Source: Desulfoscipio gibsoniae DSM 7213 (GTDB lineage: Bacteria; Bacillota; Desulfotomaculia; Desulfotomaculales; Desulfallaceae). Taken from it: a DNA stretch of 64,000 nucleotides. Below are positions 29,241 to 39,965 of this stretch, piece by piece (within the stretch, counting starts at the first letter, position 1; each line of letters begins with the position of its first letter). The position numbers and the translations under genes are program-made. The notes beneath the pieces were generated by a model, which was not told the origin of the DNA, did not search any database, and saw only the letters and a list, made by a program, of their open reading frames with translations. The stretch covers positions 1,760,001-1,824,000 of the forward strand of contig NC_021184.1 of NCBI RefSeq assembly GCF_000233715.2, read 5' to 3'.

Positions 29241-30952
29241 AAGAAAAAAGGGAATATGCAGGCATTGATTATTTTAGGGTGATTGCGGCATTTCTGGTTA
29301 TCACAATTTACACATCGCCACTATCCTCTGTAAATGAAATTGCCGATTTTATCCTTACAAGAGTCATTGCCCGTACAGTAGTGCCATTCTTTTTTATGGC
29401 CTCCGGGTTCTTCCTACTGCCAGGATATATTAGCGAGAAGAAAACAGGACCTGGGAAACTTCCAGCATTTTTGAAAAAGACCGCTATTCTATATGGTATT
29501 GCGAGTTTGATGTATTTACCGGTCAATATCTATGCGGGGTATTTTAAGTCACCACATTTGCTTCCAAATCTGCTGAAGGATCTTGTGTTTGACGGTACAT
29601 TTTATCATCTGTGGTATCTGCCTGCGGTTATGCTTGGAGCTATAATCACTTGTTTCATGCTTGGAAGGTTGAAAATAAATCATGCATTTGCCATAGCATT
29701 AGGTCTTTATGTTATCGGGCTATTTGGTGACAGCTACTATGGGATCGCTACTAAAGTACCATTCTTAAAATCTTTTTATGACGCGGTGTTCGTTTTAACT
29801 GATTACACCCGAAACGGCCTGTTCTTTGCACCGGTTTTCCTCATGCTTGGCGGATTAATTGCGAAGTATAGGAAACGTAGATTAAAGACGTGTATAATCG
29901 GATTCGCGGTATCCTCGACCCTGTTGATGATAGAGGGGTTGACACTCCATGGATTTCAAGTACAGCGGCACGACAGTATGTACTTCATGCTCCTTCCCTG
30001 TATGGTGTTTCTCTTTCAAAGCTTGATGTTTTGGGAGGGACGCGGCGGTCAAATCCTGCGGAACCTTTCCATGATGATTTATCTGATTCATCCGCTGATC
30101 ATTGTGTTCATTCGCGGTGTTGCTAAAGTTATAAGCCTCCAGCGACTGCTTATAGATAACAGTGTCGTTAATTTTCTCGCCGTTGCGTTATGCTCTTTTA
30201 TTGCTACAATGGCAATCGCATCAGCCCTGCGAAGGAAAAATAAAAAACAGCCGGTTTTGGAACAGGTATGCATGGACAGAGCATGGGCTGAAATTCATTT
30301 AGCCAATCTGGGTCATAACGTGAAGGTTCTGCGTGACATGCTTCCGAATGGATGTGAACTGATGGCTGTTGTAAAAGCTAATGCCTATGGGCATGGCGAC
30401 GTGGAGATAGCGTGTTACTTGAATAGAATTGGCGTTGCTTCCTTTGCCGTTGCAACGATAGAGGAAGGTATCCGCTTAAGAACACATGGGATTGAAGGTG
30501 ATATTTTAATTTTAGGTTATACCGACCCGCAAAGGGTTCCCGAACTCGTCAGGTATCGTTTATCACAGACGGTCACTGAATATAAACATGCAAAACAGCT
30601 GAATGCTTCCAAACAGCAAATCTCAGTGCATATCAAGATTGATACCGGTATGCACCGTTTGGGAGAAAGCTGCAATAATGCGGCGGAGATTGAAAGCATC
30701 TTTCAGTGTCATAACCTGAAAGTCTGCGGTATTTATACTCATCTGTGTGTGGCGGACAGTACGCAGGAAGATGACGTTGCATTTACCGAAGAACAATTGA
30801 GTCATTTTTATACTTTGCTGGAACAACTCAAGCAGCACCAGATTGCACTGCCCAAAATACATATTCAAAGCAGTTATGGTATTTTGAACTATCCCGAACT
30901 GCAATGCAGCTACGCCAGAAGGGGTAGGAGAGTAGGTCGTTGCTGGAATTAA
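29237..30952 (+). pseudogene. vanT: vanT serine racemase, 3'-truncated into a 5S rRNA tail
   Basis: The ATG overlaps the vanXY stop. Residues 1-335 form an acyltransferase-3-like membrane domain with about ten helices (FFFMASGFFLLPGYIS). From residue 345 the alanine-racemase-like domain begins, with the PLP lysine in VVKANAYGHG. At codon about 560 (LQCSYAR) the gene runs into gaaggggtaggagagtagg, the 3' end of a 5S rRNA, and stops at 30952. Roughly 150 residues are missing, including the second catalytic Tyr region. VanT supplies D-Ser for the ligase, and this copy should be inactive as a racemase. Confidence 0.85.
30918..30950 (+). repeat. 5S rRNA 3'-tail fragment at the vanT junction
   Basis: gaaggggtaggagagtaggt followed by cgttgctggaatt matches the insertion-bearing 3' end of the 5S gene (801-831). 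It is interrupted by the IS256-family element and continues as attttaaataacccc after it. Confidence 0.85.
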
Positions 30953-32957: not shown

Positions 32958-33797
32958 TTATGCTTTGGTATGACTATTCCTAACTATAGTTCTTTCTCCT
33001 TCAGGAATAGGAGGCGGAATAGGCATGCCGGAAATCTTTGTTACTGCACCAAAACGAGGAGGGCAAGCTTCAAAGCAAGTTCCGCATTTTATGCATTTCT
33101 CCTGGTCAATTACATGAATCTGGTTCTTGGCGCTTATGATCGCTTCGGCAGGGCATCTTCTTGCGCAAGTCATACAAGCCTGGCACTTCTCCGGATCAAT
33201 ATAGTACGATACTATTTCACTAAATAACTTATCTATCTCGTTACTGGTGAAAAGTACGTCATATTCTTCTTGGTTCTTAAGGCGTGACGCCAATTTCTTC
33301 TTTTTTGTCAGCTTAATGTAGGGAATTAGCTTTGTAACTTCTTCAAGTTTGTATTTTAATGCATTTTCCTCTAAACCTTCACCTTTGCCAAGAGGTCCTA
33401 ACTTCTCCATCTTTGTGGCAAATTCATTCATAATATTAGCGAAGCGAATTCCTTCACCGGCAGATACCCATTCAATCCTTAACCTTTCAGGGTTTACCCC
33501 TATGTGTTCCAGTATTTTTTTACACAGCTGAACTATGCTTGCTGCATCGAAATTTCCGTTAGTAATATAATGGCAGTCGTTAAGATGACAACCGCCGATA
33601 AACACCCCGTCTGCTCCTTGTGAGAAAGCCCGAAATATATGCTTCATGTCGACTCTGCCGGAGCACATCACCCTTATAAGTTTTATATAAGGGGGGTATT
33701 GAAAACGAGAAACTCCAGCAAGGTCTGCACCTCCGTAGCAGCACCAATTGCATATAATACCTAACAGCCTTGGTTTAAACTTAATTCCTGTACTCAT
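32958..33797 (-). CDS. mvhD: MvhD-type hydrogenase/heterodisulfide-reductase delta subunit with ferredoxin domain
   Basis: 279 residues. Residues 1-130 are the MvhD/FrhD-type [2Fe-2S] domain: LLGIICNWCCYGGADLAG, IRVMCSGRVD and GADGVFIGGCHLNDCHY. Residues 200-265 add two 4Fe-4S clusters (CQACMTCARRCPAEAI and CIKCGTCFEACPPRFG). It passes electrons between HdrA and a partner dehydrogenase or hydrogenase. It follows hdrA by 51 bases on the same strand, so the two form an operon. ATG 33797 follows gagtgagat. The added ferredoxin domain is an MvhD fusion type seen in sulfate reducers and acetogens. Confidence 0.88.
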   Translation of the reverse strand: MSTGIKFKPRLLGIICNWCCYGGADLAGVSRFQYPPYIKLIRVMCSGRVDMKHIFRAFSQGADGVFIGGCHLNDCHYITNGNFDAASIVQLCKKILEHIGVNPERLRIEWVSAGEGIRFANIMNEFATKMEKLGPLGKGEGLEENALKYKLEEVTKLIPYIKLTKKKKLASRLKNQEEYDVLFTSNEIDKLFSEIVSYYIDPEKCQACMTCARRCPAEAIISAKNQIHVIDQEKCIKCGTCFEACPPRFGAVTKISGMPIPPPIPEGERTIVRNSHTKA

Positions 33798-33848
33798 TTT
33801 TATCTCACTCCTGAGGCAGTAATAACTGCTTTGTTCATAAATGATCTT

Positions 33849-36800
33849 TTATAAGTCTGCAAAGGCCGCATCAATTTGGCTTAAAAGCGCTTCATCAGTA
33901 TAGTGCTTTAGTGAAATAGCCCCTGTTGGACACTTTGCGTTACAGAGACCATCTCCTTTACAGAGAACTGGATTAACTACAGCTTTTTTGCCTTGTCGTA
34001 TTTCACGAAACTCTATGGCACCATACGTACAAGCCAAGATGCACTCTCCACATCCCATACACTTACTCTCATTTACCTCACAAACAGAGCCTGAGGCTAT
34101 GACTGTATCATTTGAGAGGAGTGTTAAGACCCGACCGGCAGCTCCATAAGCCTGGCTGACTGTTTCTGCTATAAGCTTGGGATAGTGAGCTATCCCACAC
34201 AGGTAAATGCCTTCTGCTCCAAAGTCAACAGGTCTTAATTTTACATGGGCTTCCTGGAAGAATTCATCCGGACTCAAAGCCACCTTGAATAATTGTGCTA
34301 CTTCCTTACTTTCTGTGGAGGGAATAACAGCGGCAGCTAAAGCGATTGCATCGGCTTCTATCTCAAGCTTCTTACCTAAAACAGGATCGGTCACGATAAC
34401 CCTTAAAACAGGCCGTCCCTCTTCATTCTCAGCAGCTTCAACCTGTGGTTTGGCATCAGGATCATAGCGGATGAATCTGACATCCTTACTTGCCGCTTCC
34501 CGGTAATAATTCTCTTTGAACCCATATGTTCTGATATCCCTAAAGAGGATATATATATTCATCTCGGGGTTTATTTCTTTTAGGGTCAAGGCGTTTTTTA
34601 TAGATTCGTTGCAACATATCCGACTGCAGTAATTTCTCTCTTCATTTCTGCAGCCCACGCATTGAATCATCACCAGGCTCTCTGAATTAATGAGCCTTTT
34701 GTTTCCTTTGGCGATTTGCTCCTCCAACTCCAGGTGGGTCATTACACGCTCATCTTCACTATAAAGGTATTCGGTGGGTTTATATACTTGGGCACCGGTA
34801 GCGATGATGGTTGCTCCATGTTTAATTTCTGTTATCCTTTTTTCAAATTCCACCCTGGTCACGAAATTCCCCACATAACCGCTAGCTTCAGTAATGATGG
34901 CGCCAGTATATACATGTATTAAGGGGTGCTGATACACCTTTGCTATAAGGTCGCGCAAATAAGCCTGAACATCCAGTCCTTCCAGGGTATAATGTAGTTT
35001 CCGAGCGATTCCTCCCAAGTCTGTGTCCTTTTCCACCAGGTAAACACTATGTCCCTGGTTAGCTATGGAGAGTGCACTGGTTAAGCCGGCCACGCCTCCT
35101 CCGACTACCAAAGCATTCTTGTTAACGGGCAGATCAAACTCTTGCAAGGGCTTCAAAAGGCAAGCCCGGGCAACTGACATTCGGATTAATTCCTGTGCCT
35201 TTTGGGTGGCCGCTGCCTTTTCTTTAGAGTGAACCCAGGAGCAATGCTCTCTAATATTAGCAAAATCGAAATAATATTGATTAATTCCGGCTTCCCGAAG
35301 GGTGTCCCGGAACAGCGGTTCATGTGTCCTGGGGGTACAAGCTGCGACAATCACGCGGTTGAGCTCTCTTTCCTGGATATCCTTTGCTAACATTGCGGCG
35401 GCTTCAGAAGAACATATAAAGAGGTTTTCTTCAGCATGAACAACATTTGGTAAAGTCTTGGCATATTCAACTGTAGCAGGAACATTTACCACTCTTCCAA
35501 TATTAGCTCCACAATGACATACATAGACACCCACCTTGGCCTGCTCTTGTGAGACATCCCTTTCGGGCGGGTACGTCCTTTCTTTGGCTAGGTTCCCTCT
35601 CCTGTAGTTCAGGAGTTCGCCACACTGGGAACCGGCCCCGCTGGCGGTTACAACCGACTCAGGGATATCTAAAGGACCTTGGAATGCCCCGCTGACAAAA
35701 ATTCCCGGGCGGGAGGTCTCCATAGGATTAACGGGGTTGGTTTTGCAAAATCCCTGCGCATTAAGCTCGATGCCGAACTTATCTGCCAGTCCCTTTGCAT
35801 CAACAGGCGGGTTCAATCCAACGGATAATACTACCATATCGAATTCTTCCTCTTTTACTCCATCCACGGTAGTAGAATATCGCACCGTGACATTCTTGGT
35901 TTCCGGGTCCTCTTTCACTATCGATACATAGCTTCTGATAAAGCGAACCCCGGGAAGCTTCGCTGTTCTTTGATAGAATCGTTCGAAATCCTTGCCATAG
36001 GAACGAATATCGTTATGAAATATCGTACACTCAGCCCCGGCGTCATGATCTTTTGTCAAAATTACATGTTTTTGAGCATAAGTGCAGCAAACAGATGAAC
36101 AATAGCTGTTACCGCCGGGAAGAACTTGCCTGGAACCAACGCATTGAATCCAGGCTATCTTATGGGGATGCTTTTTGTCGGAAGCACGCAATATTTCACC
36201 TTCGTATGGCCCGGTGGCACATAATAGCCGTTCATAGTCCATACTGGTTACAACGTTTGCAAACTCTCCGTAGCGATACTCCTCTCTCAGCTTGGGATCG
36301 AATGGCTCAAAGCCCGGGGACAGAATTATCGCTCCTACTTTTACTTCTACCTTCTCCGCCGTTTGATTGAAATCTATGGCTTTATTCTTACAAACTCCTT
36401 CGCAAATACGACATTTATTTTCTTTAAGGTAAAGACAACTTTCATCTATATAAGGTTTAAGAGGGATTGCTTGAGCAAAATATATATGGATGGCTTTATT
36501 CTTCGATATTTCCTGATTAAATTGATTAGGGTACAAGACCGGGCAGTATTCTACACAGGTAGTACACCCAGTGCATTTGCTTTCATTAATATATCTGGGC
36601 TTTTTATTCAGGATTACCTTAAAGTCTCCAGCTTTCCCTTCGACACTGTCAACTTCAGTATATGTCATGATCTCTATATTGGGATGCCTGTTACATTCAA
36701 CAAATTTAGGCGATTCAATACACATTGAACAGTCATTGGTGGGAAAGGTCTTATCAAGCTGTGACATGTGTCCGCCAATGGTCGGGGCTTTATCCACCAA

Positions 36801-36941: not shown

Positions 36942-37067
36942 TTTTCTCCACCCTCATAAGGTTATATTGCCCGTACTCTTCTGAGTTTGAAAACTGCTTT
37001 ATAGCAGACAATTGCCTATAATTCCTAATAGCATTGGTTAAAAACATATGTTCTTTATTTTTACTTC

Positions 37068-37503
37068 TGAGGTGTAATAATCGCTTGGTTTACTAATGAC
37101 TTCTTTAATTTGAAACCGCCTTAATTTGGCTTAAGAGCTCATTATCGGTATAGTGCTTACTAAATAGCGCTGTTGGACACTTTGTATTGATCCGAATACA
37201 GGCCCCACATACATTAAACTTACGCACTTTACTTCACAAACAGAGTCGTAGGGACTACGACAGTACTAAAATGACATCACTAAGATGGAACAACTGCCTA
37301 TATAAGAACCTCGTCTGTTCCTTTTGAGTAAGCAGTTGAGTACATATGCTAGATCGACCCTGCTAGTGCACATGATGCGTATAAGTTTTGTATAAGTCGC
37401 ATATTGTTGTCTGGAAACTCCAGCCAAATCAGCAGCGCCGTTTGCTCACCAATATAACATAAAACTCAAGATCCTGGTTTTGAACTTAAGCTTTGCACCC
37501 ATG
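37068..37503 (-). pseudogene. Decayed copies of mvhD and hdrA ends
   Basis: 37068-37270 aligns with the mvhD-hdrA spacer and the 3' end of hdrA (compare ctgaggtgtaataatcgctt with ctgaggcagtaataactgct at 33807-33826, and ggacactttg near 37168 with 33930). 37290-37503 aligns with the first 70 codons of mvhD (aactccagcaaggtctgcac at 33711 against aactccagccaaatcagcag at 37412), including the reversed start codon near 37501. Frames are broken everywhere. The arrangement implies a former tandem of hdrA-mvhD units reduced by deletion. Confidence 0.7.
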
Positions 37504-37781: not shown

Positions 37782-37809
37782 AAAAGCACTATCATATGAT
37801 AGTGCTTTT
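37782..37809. terminator. Bidirectional terminator
   Basis: Perfect 28-bp palindrome, aaaagcactatcat followed by its reverse complement, with A and T runs on the two sides. It serves the minus-strand fragment ending at 37809. Confidence 0.85.
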
Positions 37810-38147
37810 CAAGTAGTTTCCAGCACTTTTTGATAATCCAAGGGATTATCCATATCCAGCAATACTACTTGATCCTCGACTTCCACATCCAGGGCATCTA
37901 TTGCATAGTTACTAAGCAACGACCTTAACCCTCCAGGCTGGTTCCAGGAAAGTATACTTTTTATATACGCAGCAGAAATAAGCGGGGGGTGTCCCCTTAA
38001 CCCTTTAAAATTGGGATATATAATGCCAGCCTTGCTCTCCCGGTAAACCTGTATTATCTCCCTGATGGTTTGCGGTTTGACCAGCGGATTATCCCCGGGC
38101 AGCATAAAAAATGCCTGCACCTCGGGTCCTTTGGAAACTATTATCAA
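37809..38147 (-). pseudogene. MobA/MocA-like nucleotidyltransferase, 5'-truncated
   Basis: The fragment carries the central and C-terminal parts of a NTP-transferase of the molybdenum-cofactor type: AFFMLPGDNPLVKPQTIREI (the acid-containing metal site), GLRGHPPLISAAYIKSIL and LLDMDNPLDYQKVLE. The N-terminal GxGxSxRxG nucleotide-binding loop, about 90 residues, is missing. The open frame ends in AT-rich DNA at 38147. It is therefore inactive. Family members transfer CMP or GMP to molybdopterin. The only other molybdenum-cofactor gene in the window is the MoaE-like gene at 7483. Confidence 0.7.
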
Positions 38148-38284
38148 TTAATAAATTATTTTGTTTTACATTATCCGTTCAACCGACCATCGGGGCTATA
38201 CAATTTACCGTCTTTATCATAAAAATAAATCCAATAAAAATTATTTATTAGATTTATTTAATAACTTTATGATAAAATACTTTC

Positions 38285-38380
38285 GGGGAGAATGGGGATG
38301 GTCCCCCCGCGGGCCGCAAACCCGTTGGCCTGCCCGTAACCAGGGTGGGAGTCCGGTTCGATTCCGACTTCTCCCCTCCA
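38285..38380 (+). tRNA. tRNA-Sec-shaped tRNA with GCA (Cys) anticodon (selC*-like)
   Basis: 96 bases including CCA. An 8-bp acceptor stem (38285-38292 with 38369-38376). D arm ggggatggtcccc with 4-5 bp and a minimal loop. Anticodon stem cggg/cccg with loop ccgcaaa, giving anticodon GCA at 38316-38318. Bases gttgg follow, then a 7-bp variable arm (38329-38335 with 38343-38349). The T arm is gtc(c)gg-ttcgatt-ccgac, 5 bp with one bulged C (38353 or 38354). Eight plus five pairs, the long variable arm and the tiny D lo​op are tRNA-Sec features, but the anticodon reads Cys codons. Position 33 is C instead of U. Such tRNA-Cys variants of selC have been reported in a few bacteria. Confidence 0.7.
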
Positions 38381-38383
38381 CAT

Positions 38384-38459
38384 TGGGGCGTAGCCAAGTG
38401 GTAAGGCACCGGTACTGGCGACTTTGGCATCTCGTTGCAAATCCAGCCGCCCCCAGCCA
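38384..38459 (+). pseudogene. Decayed tRNA, Gln-like
   Basis: tggggcgtagccaagtggta at the 5' end and ccagccg...agcca at the 3' end match tRNA-Gln outlines, and the length (76) is right. The acceptor 3' strand has one C too many, the T arm lacks the ttc of its loop (cgttgcaaatccagc), and no sound anticodon stem forms around gactttggc. It lies 3 bases after the selC*-like tRNA. It is probably a relic. Confidence 0.55.
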
Positions 38460-38478
38460 GCTTTTCATTTGTACATAA

Positions 38479-38554
38479 GGGCCATTGGCTCAATTGGTAG
38501 AGCAGGCGACTCTTAATCGTCAGGTTGAAGGTTCGAGTCCTTCATGGCCCACCA
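38479..38554 (+). tRNA. tRNA-Lys (CTT)
   Basis: A complete cloverleaf: acceptor gggccat/atggccc, D arm gctcaattggtagagc, anticodon stem ggcga/tcgtc around loop ctcttaa (anticodon CTT), T arm gaaggttcgagtccttc, and encoded CCA at 38552-38554. It is followed directly by a terminator, so it closes the small tRNA unit. Confidence 0.95.
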
Positions 38555-38606: not shown

Positions 38607-38822
38607 ATGGATGAAGAACTTAACAAAATAAAATTAAAGATGAAAGCACTTGGTTTTACCCAACAGCAAATTGAATCTATTATAGAGAAAACCCATTCCG
38701 GGAAATGTTGGGATGAAATGAGTGACCCAGAAAAGCAGCAAATACTAAGATCAATAAATGAAAGAATAATTTTTGCTAGAAAATTTTTTCAGATTTTAAG
38801 TTGTAATACCTGTTATAAATAA
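38607..38822 (+). CDS. Small helical protein of unknown function
   Basis: 71 residues beginning at ATG 38607 (TTG 38604 is in frame just before). The sequence is amphipathic and helical (ELNKIKLKMKALGFTQQQIE; DEMSDPEKQQILRSINERI) with a C-terminal CNTCYK. It resembles many short Clostridial proteins that lack a named family. The RBS ggaag is weak. It stands alone between the tRNA unit and the 23S fragment. Confidence 0.45.
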   Translation: MDEELNKIKLKMKALGFTQQQIESIIEKTHSGKCWDEMSDPEKQQILRSINERIIFARKFFQILSCNTCYK

Positions 38823-38934
38823 TATTAGCCTCATATTTATTTGCTATCTAATAGTAGGTAATCTGTATAAACCATTGGGTCACATATTGGTCTTAAGAAG
38901 GTGCAATTAGTTGTTAATAAGAAAGCTGCTATTA

Positions 38935-39890
<956 letters not shown>

Positions 39891-39891
39891 A

Positions 39892-39951
39892 GGTATTTGG
39901 GCATCTACCCTGCTGTGTGCCCCGAAGGGGTAGGAGAGTAGGTCGTTGCTG
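39892..39951 (+). repeat. 5S rRNA 3' half fused to the 23S fragment
   Basis: ggtatttgggc, then the insertion tgctgtgtgccccgaagggg, then gagagtaggtcgttgctgg match 768-831 of the 5S gene, including its second insertion. So this tail derives from the same expanded 5S type. Confidence 0.85.
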
Positions 39952-39965
39952 GAATTAATTTTAAA

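What the first reader, a model, noticed from the sequence alone, without database searches (positions are those of the whole stretch)
38285..38380. Selenocysteine-tRNA-shaped tRNA carrying a cysteine anticodon
The 8-bp acceptor stem, 5-bp T stem (one bulged C), minimal D loop and 7-bp variable arm are tRNA-Sec features, but the anticodon is GCA, not TCA. tRNA-Cys variants of selC (selC*, allo-tRNA class) have been described in a few bacteria. If charged with Ser or Sec by SerRS/SelA it would misread Cys codons; if charged with Cys it may serve special uses. C at position 33 and the bulged C are further oddities.
Basis: partly seen in the sequence, partly recalled or inferred. Interest (0 to 1): 0.8.

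Follow-up and report, generated by a model that had tools for sequence, protein, structure and literature searches.

The report
Selenium-linked cysteine tRNA shaped like tRNA-Sec
This is a real transfer RNA gene that carries cysteine signals on a body shaped like the selenocysteine tRNA; many of its relatives sit beside selenium-uptake and selenium-regulator genes, which gives a tRNA class of unknown purpose a testable link to selenium supply.

Summary
Confirmed: 38285-38380 (+) is an intact tRNA with an 8-bp acceptor stem, 5-bp T stem with one bulged C, 7-bp variable arm, anticodon GCA, U73 and encoded CCA. It is a selC*-type tRNA-Cys, a class known in Firmicutes, not a recoded tRNA-Sec. Among 66 distinct genes of the kind, U73 is in 66, GCA in 64, C33 in 4. 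Added here: a selenium link. 17 of 66 lie directly before the putative selenium transporter gene yedE; 27 of 66 have a selenium-linked gene within 600 nt (control: 0 of 20 distinct other tRNA places, 1.5 kb); all 28 genomes with the tRNA in a 398-genome sample carry selD; a LysR-type box (ATAAA-N5-TTTAT) precedes 40 of 66, the window copy included (shuffles 5.9). Most likely it is a cysteine-charged tRNA of the selenium regulon, read at UGU/UGC; expression, charging and purpose are inferred. The window copy has no such gene beside it, lies among decayed genes and may be weak.

The parts
38285..38380 (+). selC*-type tRNA-Cys: Sec-shaped body, anticodon GCA (38316-38318), C33 at 38315, bulged C at 38353 (or 38354), U73 at 38377, encoded CCA 38378-38380
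38234..38248 (.). ATAAAAATTATTTAT, perfect ATAAA-N5-TTTAT inverted repeat (T-N11-A, LysR-type box), 36 nt before the tRNA
   Evidence: 40 of 66 loci, this one included, have at least 9 of 10 letters
38273..38278 (+). TAAAAT, likely -10 element; the 7 aligned orthologues have TAATAT or TATTAT there
   Evidence: alignment; the generic promoter scan did not report it
38384..38461 (+). decayed tRNA (Gln-type body, recalled) between selC* and tRNA-Lys; the sister species has a better preserved copy with an 8-nt anticodon loop
   Evidence: Rfam tRNA 19.9 bits, below 29; L042 tRNA-??? (ggcg)
38479..38554 (+). tRNA-Lys(CTT), next to selC* also in L040, L041, L042, L044 and, 276 nt away, L046
38607..38822 (+). 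small ORF, 71 aa, ends in SCNTCYK; beside selC* in 8 of 66 loci, this one included; no Pfam or NCBIfam match

Best explanation
The gene makes a selC*-type tRNA-Cys: a tRNA with the 13-pair acceptor/T branch and long variable arm of tRNA-Sec but with cysteine identity (U73, GCA). The host's single CysRS charges it with cysteine, and EF-Tu delivers it to UGU/UGC codons beside the normal tRNA-Cys. The class belongs to the selenium regulon: many of its genes sit in front of or among yedE, tusA, double-cubane reductase, selD and LysR_Se genes and share a LysR-type box, so it is probably made when selenium is scarce, alongside the putative selenium importer. Shown: sequence, fold, identity elements, paralogues, gene context, co-occurrence with selD, shared box. 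Inferred: charging, decoding, the regulator, the physiological purpose. The window copy belongs to a tRNA-Lys-linked subgroup without a selenium gene beside it; it keeps fold, box and -10, but has C33 and lies among decayed genes, so it may be a weak or ageing copy.
For: Fold by covariation. U73 and CCA 66 of 66, GCA 64 of 66. Closer to tRNA-Sec than to tRNA-Cys: model R1 scores three true tRNA-Sec 71.5, 69.2 and 50.9 bits, the normal tRNA-Cys 31.0. One cysS and one selB over cut-off in the genome. yedE directly downstream in 17 of 66 and a selenium-linked gene within 600 nt in 27 of 66; 0 of 23 control tRNA loci of the host (20 distinct places). yedE, double-cubane and activase proteins of the L003 locus pass NCBIfam cut-offs. 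LysR_Se beside selC* passes its cut-off in both loci scanned, L165 and L122. selD in 28 of 28 selC* genomes against 235 of 370 others, Fisher p 1e-5. Box: 40 of 66 against 5.9 in shuffles, 0 of 21 other-tRNA upstreams (20 distinct); also before selD of the same genome. In Methanococcus, yedE transcript rises 5.28 log2 on selenium starvation and a LysR-type regulator (HrsM) handles the Sec/Cys switch (PMC11097638 passages).
Against: 38 of 66 loci show no selenium-linked gene within the flanks examined (up to 5 kb, often shorter), the window copy among them. yedE occurs in 19 of 28 selC* genomes, and 134 genomes of the sample have yedE without a selC* above 74 bits. The box was first seen in the same data set, and perfect sites are not enriched genome-wide (45 against 53 for the reversed control). 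Of 20 selD upstreams from 19 selC* genomes, 2 have a perfect box, 5 score 9 of 10 and 13 less. LysR_Se-type genes are in 40 of 41 relatives, carriers or not. The same Methanococcus paper says no tested transporter, yedE included, could be unequivocally tied to a selenium species. Co-occurrence tests ignore relatedness. Transcription, charging and decoding are untested. C33 and the decayed surroundings weaken the case for the window copy itself.
Confidence: 0.6

Rival explanations
1. The window copy is a decaying pseudogene of the selC* class, left in a region of broken genes.
For: Two paralogues elsewhere. Neighbours are broken: a C-terminal NTP-transferase fragment, a degenerate tRNA, a 23S fragment, HdrA/MvhD remnants. 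C33 is shared by only 3 other members of 66.
Against: All acceptor and T-stem pairs intact; against its orthologue L110 there are 6 differences, two of them forming a compensatory U-A to C-G change in the variable arm (pairing); box and -10 conserved; synteny with tRNA-Lys and the small ORF kept.
Confidence: 0.25
2. It is a selenocysteine tRNA recoded to Cys codons: charged with Ser by SerRS, converted by SelA, delivered by SelB.
For: Sec-like body; tRNA-Sec with sense anticodons exist (PMC7609411 passages).
Against: U73 in 66 of 66 instead of G73; 4-bp D stem in the window and 5 in other members, where the host's tRNA-Sec folds with 6; a true tRNA-Sec(UCA) is present; below the Rfam tRNA-Sec threshold.
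Confidence: 0.03
3. It is mainly a cis-acting leader: the tRNA structure in front of yedE controls that mRNA, by processing or by uncharged/charged state, and decoding is secondary.
For: In most of the 17 yedE-linked loci the CCA end lies about 6 to 20 nt before the likely ribosome-binding site of yedE, by eye (L117 is further away).
Against: Anticodon, U73 and CCA are conserved also in the 49 loci without yedE directly downstream; the window copy has no such gene behind it.
Confidence: 0.12

Closest known systems
selC* tRNA-Cys (Mukai et al. 2017; known to me only through the review PMC7609411, section 5)
   Same: Anaerobes including Firmicutes; 8-bp acceptor, long variable arm, T-stem bulge, U73, GCA anticodon.
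   Different: T stem here has 5 pairs, with a bulged C in 46 of 66 members, a bulged A in 4, no bulge in 9 and other forms in 7, not 4 pairs plus A51a; the anticodon stem is 5 bp; no second selB or cysS in this genome; selenium gene neighbourhood and LysR-type box, which that section does not mention (primary paper not held).
Bacterial tRNA-Sec (selC, Rfam RF01852)
   Same: 8+5 acceptor/T branch, long variable arm; R1 scores true tRNA-Sec above the other tRNAs of the 7 loci tested.
   Different: U73 not G73, GCA not UCA, shorter D stem, below the gathering score.
allo-tRNA
   Same: Long acceptor stem and variable arm, unusual anticodons.
   Different: 12-bp branch and serine identity (PMC7609411 section 5); here 13 pairs and cysteine identity.
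LysR_Se / YedE / YedF selenium gene set (Lin et al. 2015, PMC5322559, passages)
   Same: yedE, SirA/TusA-like, LysR_Se, HGD-D and activase genes recur as neighbours of selC*.
   Different: The passages read there name no tRNA-Cys as a member (main text holds 0 occurrences of selC).

Membership tests
selC* tRNA-Cys | 8-bp acceptor stem | tested here: met
   GGGGAGAA/TTCTCCCC; 99.1% of cells paired in 29 sequences
selC* tRNA-Cys | U73 discriminator and cysteine (GCA) or opal anticodon | tested here: met
   66 of 66 U73; GCA 64, ACA 2; 16 of the 66 were found only by a pattern that demanded GCA and U73
selC* tRNA-Cys | 4-bp T stem with unpaired A at 51a | tested here: inconclusive
   A bulge is present, but it is a C and the stem has 5 pairs; whether the published Firmicutes members look the same could not be read
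selC* tRNA-Cys | longer variable arm | tested here: met
   7 pairs in the window; the 8-pair helix has 93.9% of cells paired in 29 members
selC* tRNA-Cys | longer anticodon stem | tested here: not met
   5 pairs; the host's own tRNA-Sec also folds with 5; hence filed as a selC*-type variant, not strict membership
selC* tRNA-Cys | partner SelB*/CysRS* (reported only for two delta-proteobacterial groups) | tested here: not met
   one selB and one cysS over cut-off in the host; not reported as a feature in Firmicutes
tRNA-Sec | G73 | tested here: not met
   U73
tRNA-Sec | UCA anticodon | tested here: not met
   GCA
tRNA-Sec | Rfam RF01852 gathering score 47 | tested here: not met
   42.4 bits
allo-tRNA | 12-bp branch (8/4 or 9/3) with serine identity | tested here: not met
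   8+5 pairs, U73
any tRNA-Cys | aminoacylation with Cys by CysRS | not testable with these tools
   needs biochemistry

The most novel reading that the evidence does not exclude
selC*-type tRNA-Cys is a selenium-starvation adaptor: LysR_Se switches it on together with the selenium importer, and its Sec-like body lets SelB (or wobble, as I34 made from the A34 of the ACA copies would pair with A) place cysteine at UGA-Sec codons, so that selenoproteins are made as cysteine versions when selenium runs out.
Probability: 0.1. Interest if true: 0.9.

Novelty: new variant of a known kind. Interest (0 to 1): 0.55.

Why it matters
The purpose of Sec-shaped cysteine tRNAs is open. A shared box, directly linked selenium genes and co-occurrence with selD in all 28 carriers of the sample turn it into a testable claim: these tRNAs answer to selenium supply. 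If so, a bacterium would tune which cysteine adaptor it uses by the availability of another element, a link between tRNA pools and trace-element homeostasis, in culturable sulfate reducers.

Tried and rejected
Recoded tRNA-Sec and allo-tRNA were considered and rejected on U73 and branch length. Dedicated partners (second selB or cysS) were sought in the host and not found. The single-sequence fold of the window copy differed from the cloverleaf in three arms; the comparative structure was used. The generic promoter/terminator scan gave nothing for the tRNA. The box upstream of selD and of unlinked yedE genes was mixed: perfect in 3 of 27 selD regions (G000, G010, G003) and 2 of 13 unlinked yedE regions (G003, G031), 9 of 10 letters in 6 and 7 more; G003 and G031 had no selC* match. 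I fetched these regions for 19 of the 28 selC* genomes (selD) and 11 (yedE), not all. Genome-wide the perfect box is no more frequent than its reversed control. Literature: of eight searches, the seven that could show it (listings and starts of abstracts) showed no paper that joins selC* with yedE or LysR_Se; the primary selC* paper is not held, so priority is not claimed. In the 398-genome sample, matches of 71.5 bits and less, listed or not, were not read except two, both TCA (L101, L102); the 74-bit line was drawn after seeing them, and 28 selC* genomes is a lower bound. The 3'-half copy L111b was dropped from the 67 rows before counting, leaving 66. The script reads L130 out of register; by eye its residue 33 is A. 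Of the 23 control loci three pairs overlap (20 distinct places), and of the 21 one pair is the same place (20 distinct); both sets include the true tRNA-Sec locus.

Full report
What is there. The sequence at 38285-38380 (+) was read directly and called tRNA-Cys(gca) by ARAGORN. It has an 8-bp acceptor stem, a 4-bp D stem with a 5-nt loop, a 5-bp anticodon stem with loop CCGCAAA (residue 33 = C, anticodon GCA), a 7-bp variable arm, a 5-bp T stem with one bulged C, U73 and an encoded CCA. Rfam's tRNA-Sec model matches at 42.4 bits, under its gathering score of 47.

Host. The window is C1:1760001-1824000 of a single-contig genome of 4,855,529 bp, the length published for Desulfotomaculum gibsoniae Groll (PMC4148979, Table 3 passage; now Desulfoscipio, recalled). 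Same-genus genome G006 has a contig of 4,259,676 bases, the length given for Desulfoscipio sp. strain L (PMC12896167, start of abstract in a listing). The genome holds a true tRNA-Sec(UCA) (L001), a normal tRNA-Cys(GCA) (L023), and three Sec-shaped Cys tRNAs: L003 (GCA), L005 (ACA) and the window copy. One selB and one cysS pass their cut-offs; selD is present; selA was not searched.

Family. BLASTN with the window gene gave matches in 24 of 41 related genomes, own genome included, some of them partial. From 29 full-length members (A3) the structure was tested: 96.5% of cells paired, 16 of 31 pairs with changes on both sides (shuffled mean 6.9; 0 of 500 as high), and slid structures far worse. 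A covariance model R1 was run over 398 genomes of the phylum, and a pattern over genome contigs gave 29 stretches, 16 of them titled with Desulfo- genera such as Desulfoscipio, Desulfotruncus, Desulforamulus and Desulfofundulus. After merging duplicates and dropping one 3'-half copy, 66 distinct genes remain. U73 and CCA are in 66 of 66, GCA in 64, ACA in 2 (the host's own L133 and L137); residue 33 is U in 61, C in 4 (window, L111, L115, L178) and A in one, L130, by eye. Sixteen of the 66 were found only by the pattern, which demanded GCA and U73, and R1 was built from such genes, so conservation is partly by construction. R1 scores three true tRNA-Sec 71.5, 69.2 and 50.9 bits and the normal tRNA-Cys 31.0: the body is Sec-like. 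The T stem has 5 pairs with a bulged C in 46 of 66, a bulged A in 4, no bulge in 9; 7 do not fit either form.

Selenium context. L003 and L005 lie directly in front of yedE (L003: TIGR04112, 503.7 bits against a cut-off of 200), followed by a TusA-domain gene (L003: Pfam TusA 68.1 over 28.6; the YedF model, 61.1, stays under its cut-off of 110); L003 also has a divergent double-cubane reductase gene (NF040772, 499.6 against 350) and its activase (226.6 against 125.4). Over the 66 loci (flanks up to 5 kb, often shorter), yedE is within 200 nt downstream on the same strand in 17, a double-cubane gene is present in 10, LysR_Se directly upstream in 4, selD in 2; any such gene within 600 nt in 27, within 5 kb in 28, none in 38, the window copy among these; 0 of 23 other tRNA loci of the host (20 distinct places, 1.5-kb flanks). 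Two of the four LysR genes were scanned and both pass the cut-off of the selenium-metabolism LysR family (L165 296.4, L122 261.0 against 250). L165, L167 and L168 have the order LysR_Se - selC* - yedE - tusA; L162 has yedE - selC* - tusA. These are genes that Lin et al. 2015 linked to selenium (PMC5322559, passages). In the 398-genome sample all 28 genomes with selC* above 74 bits, each read with GCA, have selD, against 235 of 370 others (p 1e-5); yedE is in 19 of 28 against 134 of 370 (p 0.002). These tests ignore relatedness, and weaker matches were not read.

A shared upstream box. In the 130 nt upstream, ATAAA-N5-TTTAT with at least 9 of 10 letters occurs in 40 of 66 (shuffles 5.9 +- 2.3, largest 14), perfect in 19 (shuffles 0.43, largest 4); after removing similar upstreams 33 of 56 (4.7, largest 11); 0 of 21 other-tRNA upstreams of the host, 20 of them distinct (first look). 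The spacing gives T-N11-A, the usual layout of LysR-type sites (recalled). The motif was noticed in the same data, which inflates it. More independent: in the host, perfect boxes, 45 genome-wide and not more than the reversed control's 53, fall before selD, between the double-cubane gene and selC* of L003, and before the L005 and window copies. Elsewhere the picture is mixed: among 20 selD upstreams of 19 selC* genomes 2 are perfect, 5 have 9 of 10 and 13 less; among 11 unlinked yedE upstreams of selC* genomes none is perfect and 7 have 9 of 10; perfect boxes also stand before selD and yedE of G003 and yedE of G031, which had no selC* match. LysR_Se-type genes occur in 40 of 41 relatives, with three over the cut-off in the host, so the regulator itself is not specific to selC* carriers.

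The window copy. It belongs to a subgroup followed by tRNA-Lys(CTT) and/or a 71-aa ORF (8 of 66 loci hold the ORF, this one included). It keeps the box (38234-38248) and a -10-like TAAAAT (38273-38278) aligned with 7 orthologues. Against orthologue L110 it has 6 differences; on the pairing two of them make a compensatory U-A to C-G change in the variable arm, one removes the last pair of that arm, one is U33C. Its surroundings are decayed: NTP-transferase fragment 37809-38147, degenerate tRNA 38384-38461, 23S fragment 38832-39936, HdrA/MvhD remnants near 37002-37427. So the gene is intact, yet the copy may be weak.

Mechanism. With cysteine identity elements, one CysRS and no selB*, the simplest reading is Cys charging by CysRS and decoding of UGU/UGC through EF-Tu (inferred). 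The selenium context suggests production under selenium control. In Methanococcus maripaludis the yedE transcript rises 5.28 log2 on selenium starvation and the LysR-type HrsM represses the Cys isogenes when selenium is adequate, although no tested transporter could be unequivocally tied to a selenium species there (PMC11097638, passages); starvation induction is therefore the favoured sign (inferred by analogy). Why such a body is useful is unknown: it might resist or buffer Sec mischarging, since CysRS can charge tRNA-Cys with Sec and Sec then enters at UGU/UGC (PMC3636253, abstract and passages), or it might meet SelB. The bold version, cysteine at UGA in starved cells, echoes the opal selC* of delta-proteobacteria (PMC7609411, section 5) but has no direct support here.

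Known or new. The class is known (selC* tRNA-Cys; review PMC7609411 section 5 read, primary paper not held). One descriptive feature is not met (longer anticodon stem) and one not literally (4-bp T stem with A51a), so I file it as a selC*-type variant. The selenium linkage is not in the review section read and did not appear in the listings of the seven searches that could show it, but I cannot say that the primary paper lacks it.

Noticed in passing
L042 / L134 (Desulfoscipio strain L), and window 38384-38461: Between selC* and tRNA-Lys the sister species has a Gln-type tRNA (type recalled) with an 8-nt anticodon loop (ARAGORN: four-base anticodon ggcg); the window counterpart is degenerate.
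   Followed up: partly
window 38607-38822: 71-aa ORF ending in a CxxC-like SCNTC tail, beside selC* in 8 of 66 loci (this one included), no Pfam or NCBIfam match.
   Followed up: partly
L133 (own genome) and L137: Two yedE-linked copies carry anticodon ACA; A34 is rare in bacteria (recalled) and, if made inosine, could also read UGA.
   Followed up: no
window 30915-30952 and 39921-39958; 38832-39936: The 3' tail of a 5S rRNA gene (as in 798-835) sits inside a truncated ORF that reads like a membrane-bound racemase (by eye, not searched) and at the end of a 23S fragment, pointing to rearrangement through rRNA operons.
   Followed up: partly
window 37002-37427 against 33736-33937: Decayed second copy of HdrA/MvhD-like genes upstream of the tRNA; HdrA/MvhD genes also adjoin selC* in L179 and L172.
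   Followed up: partly
L111 4519-4615: A 3'-half copy of selC* 1.3 kb downstream of the whole gene in Desulfofundulus thermobenzoicus, as integration at a tRNA gene would leave.
   Followed up: no
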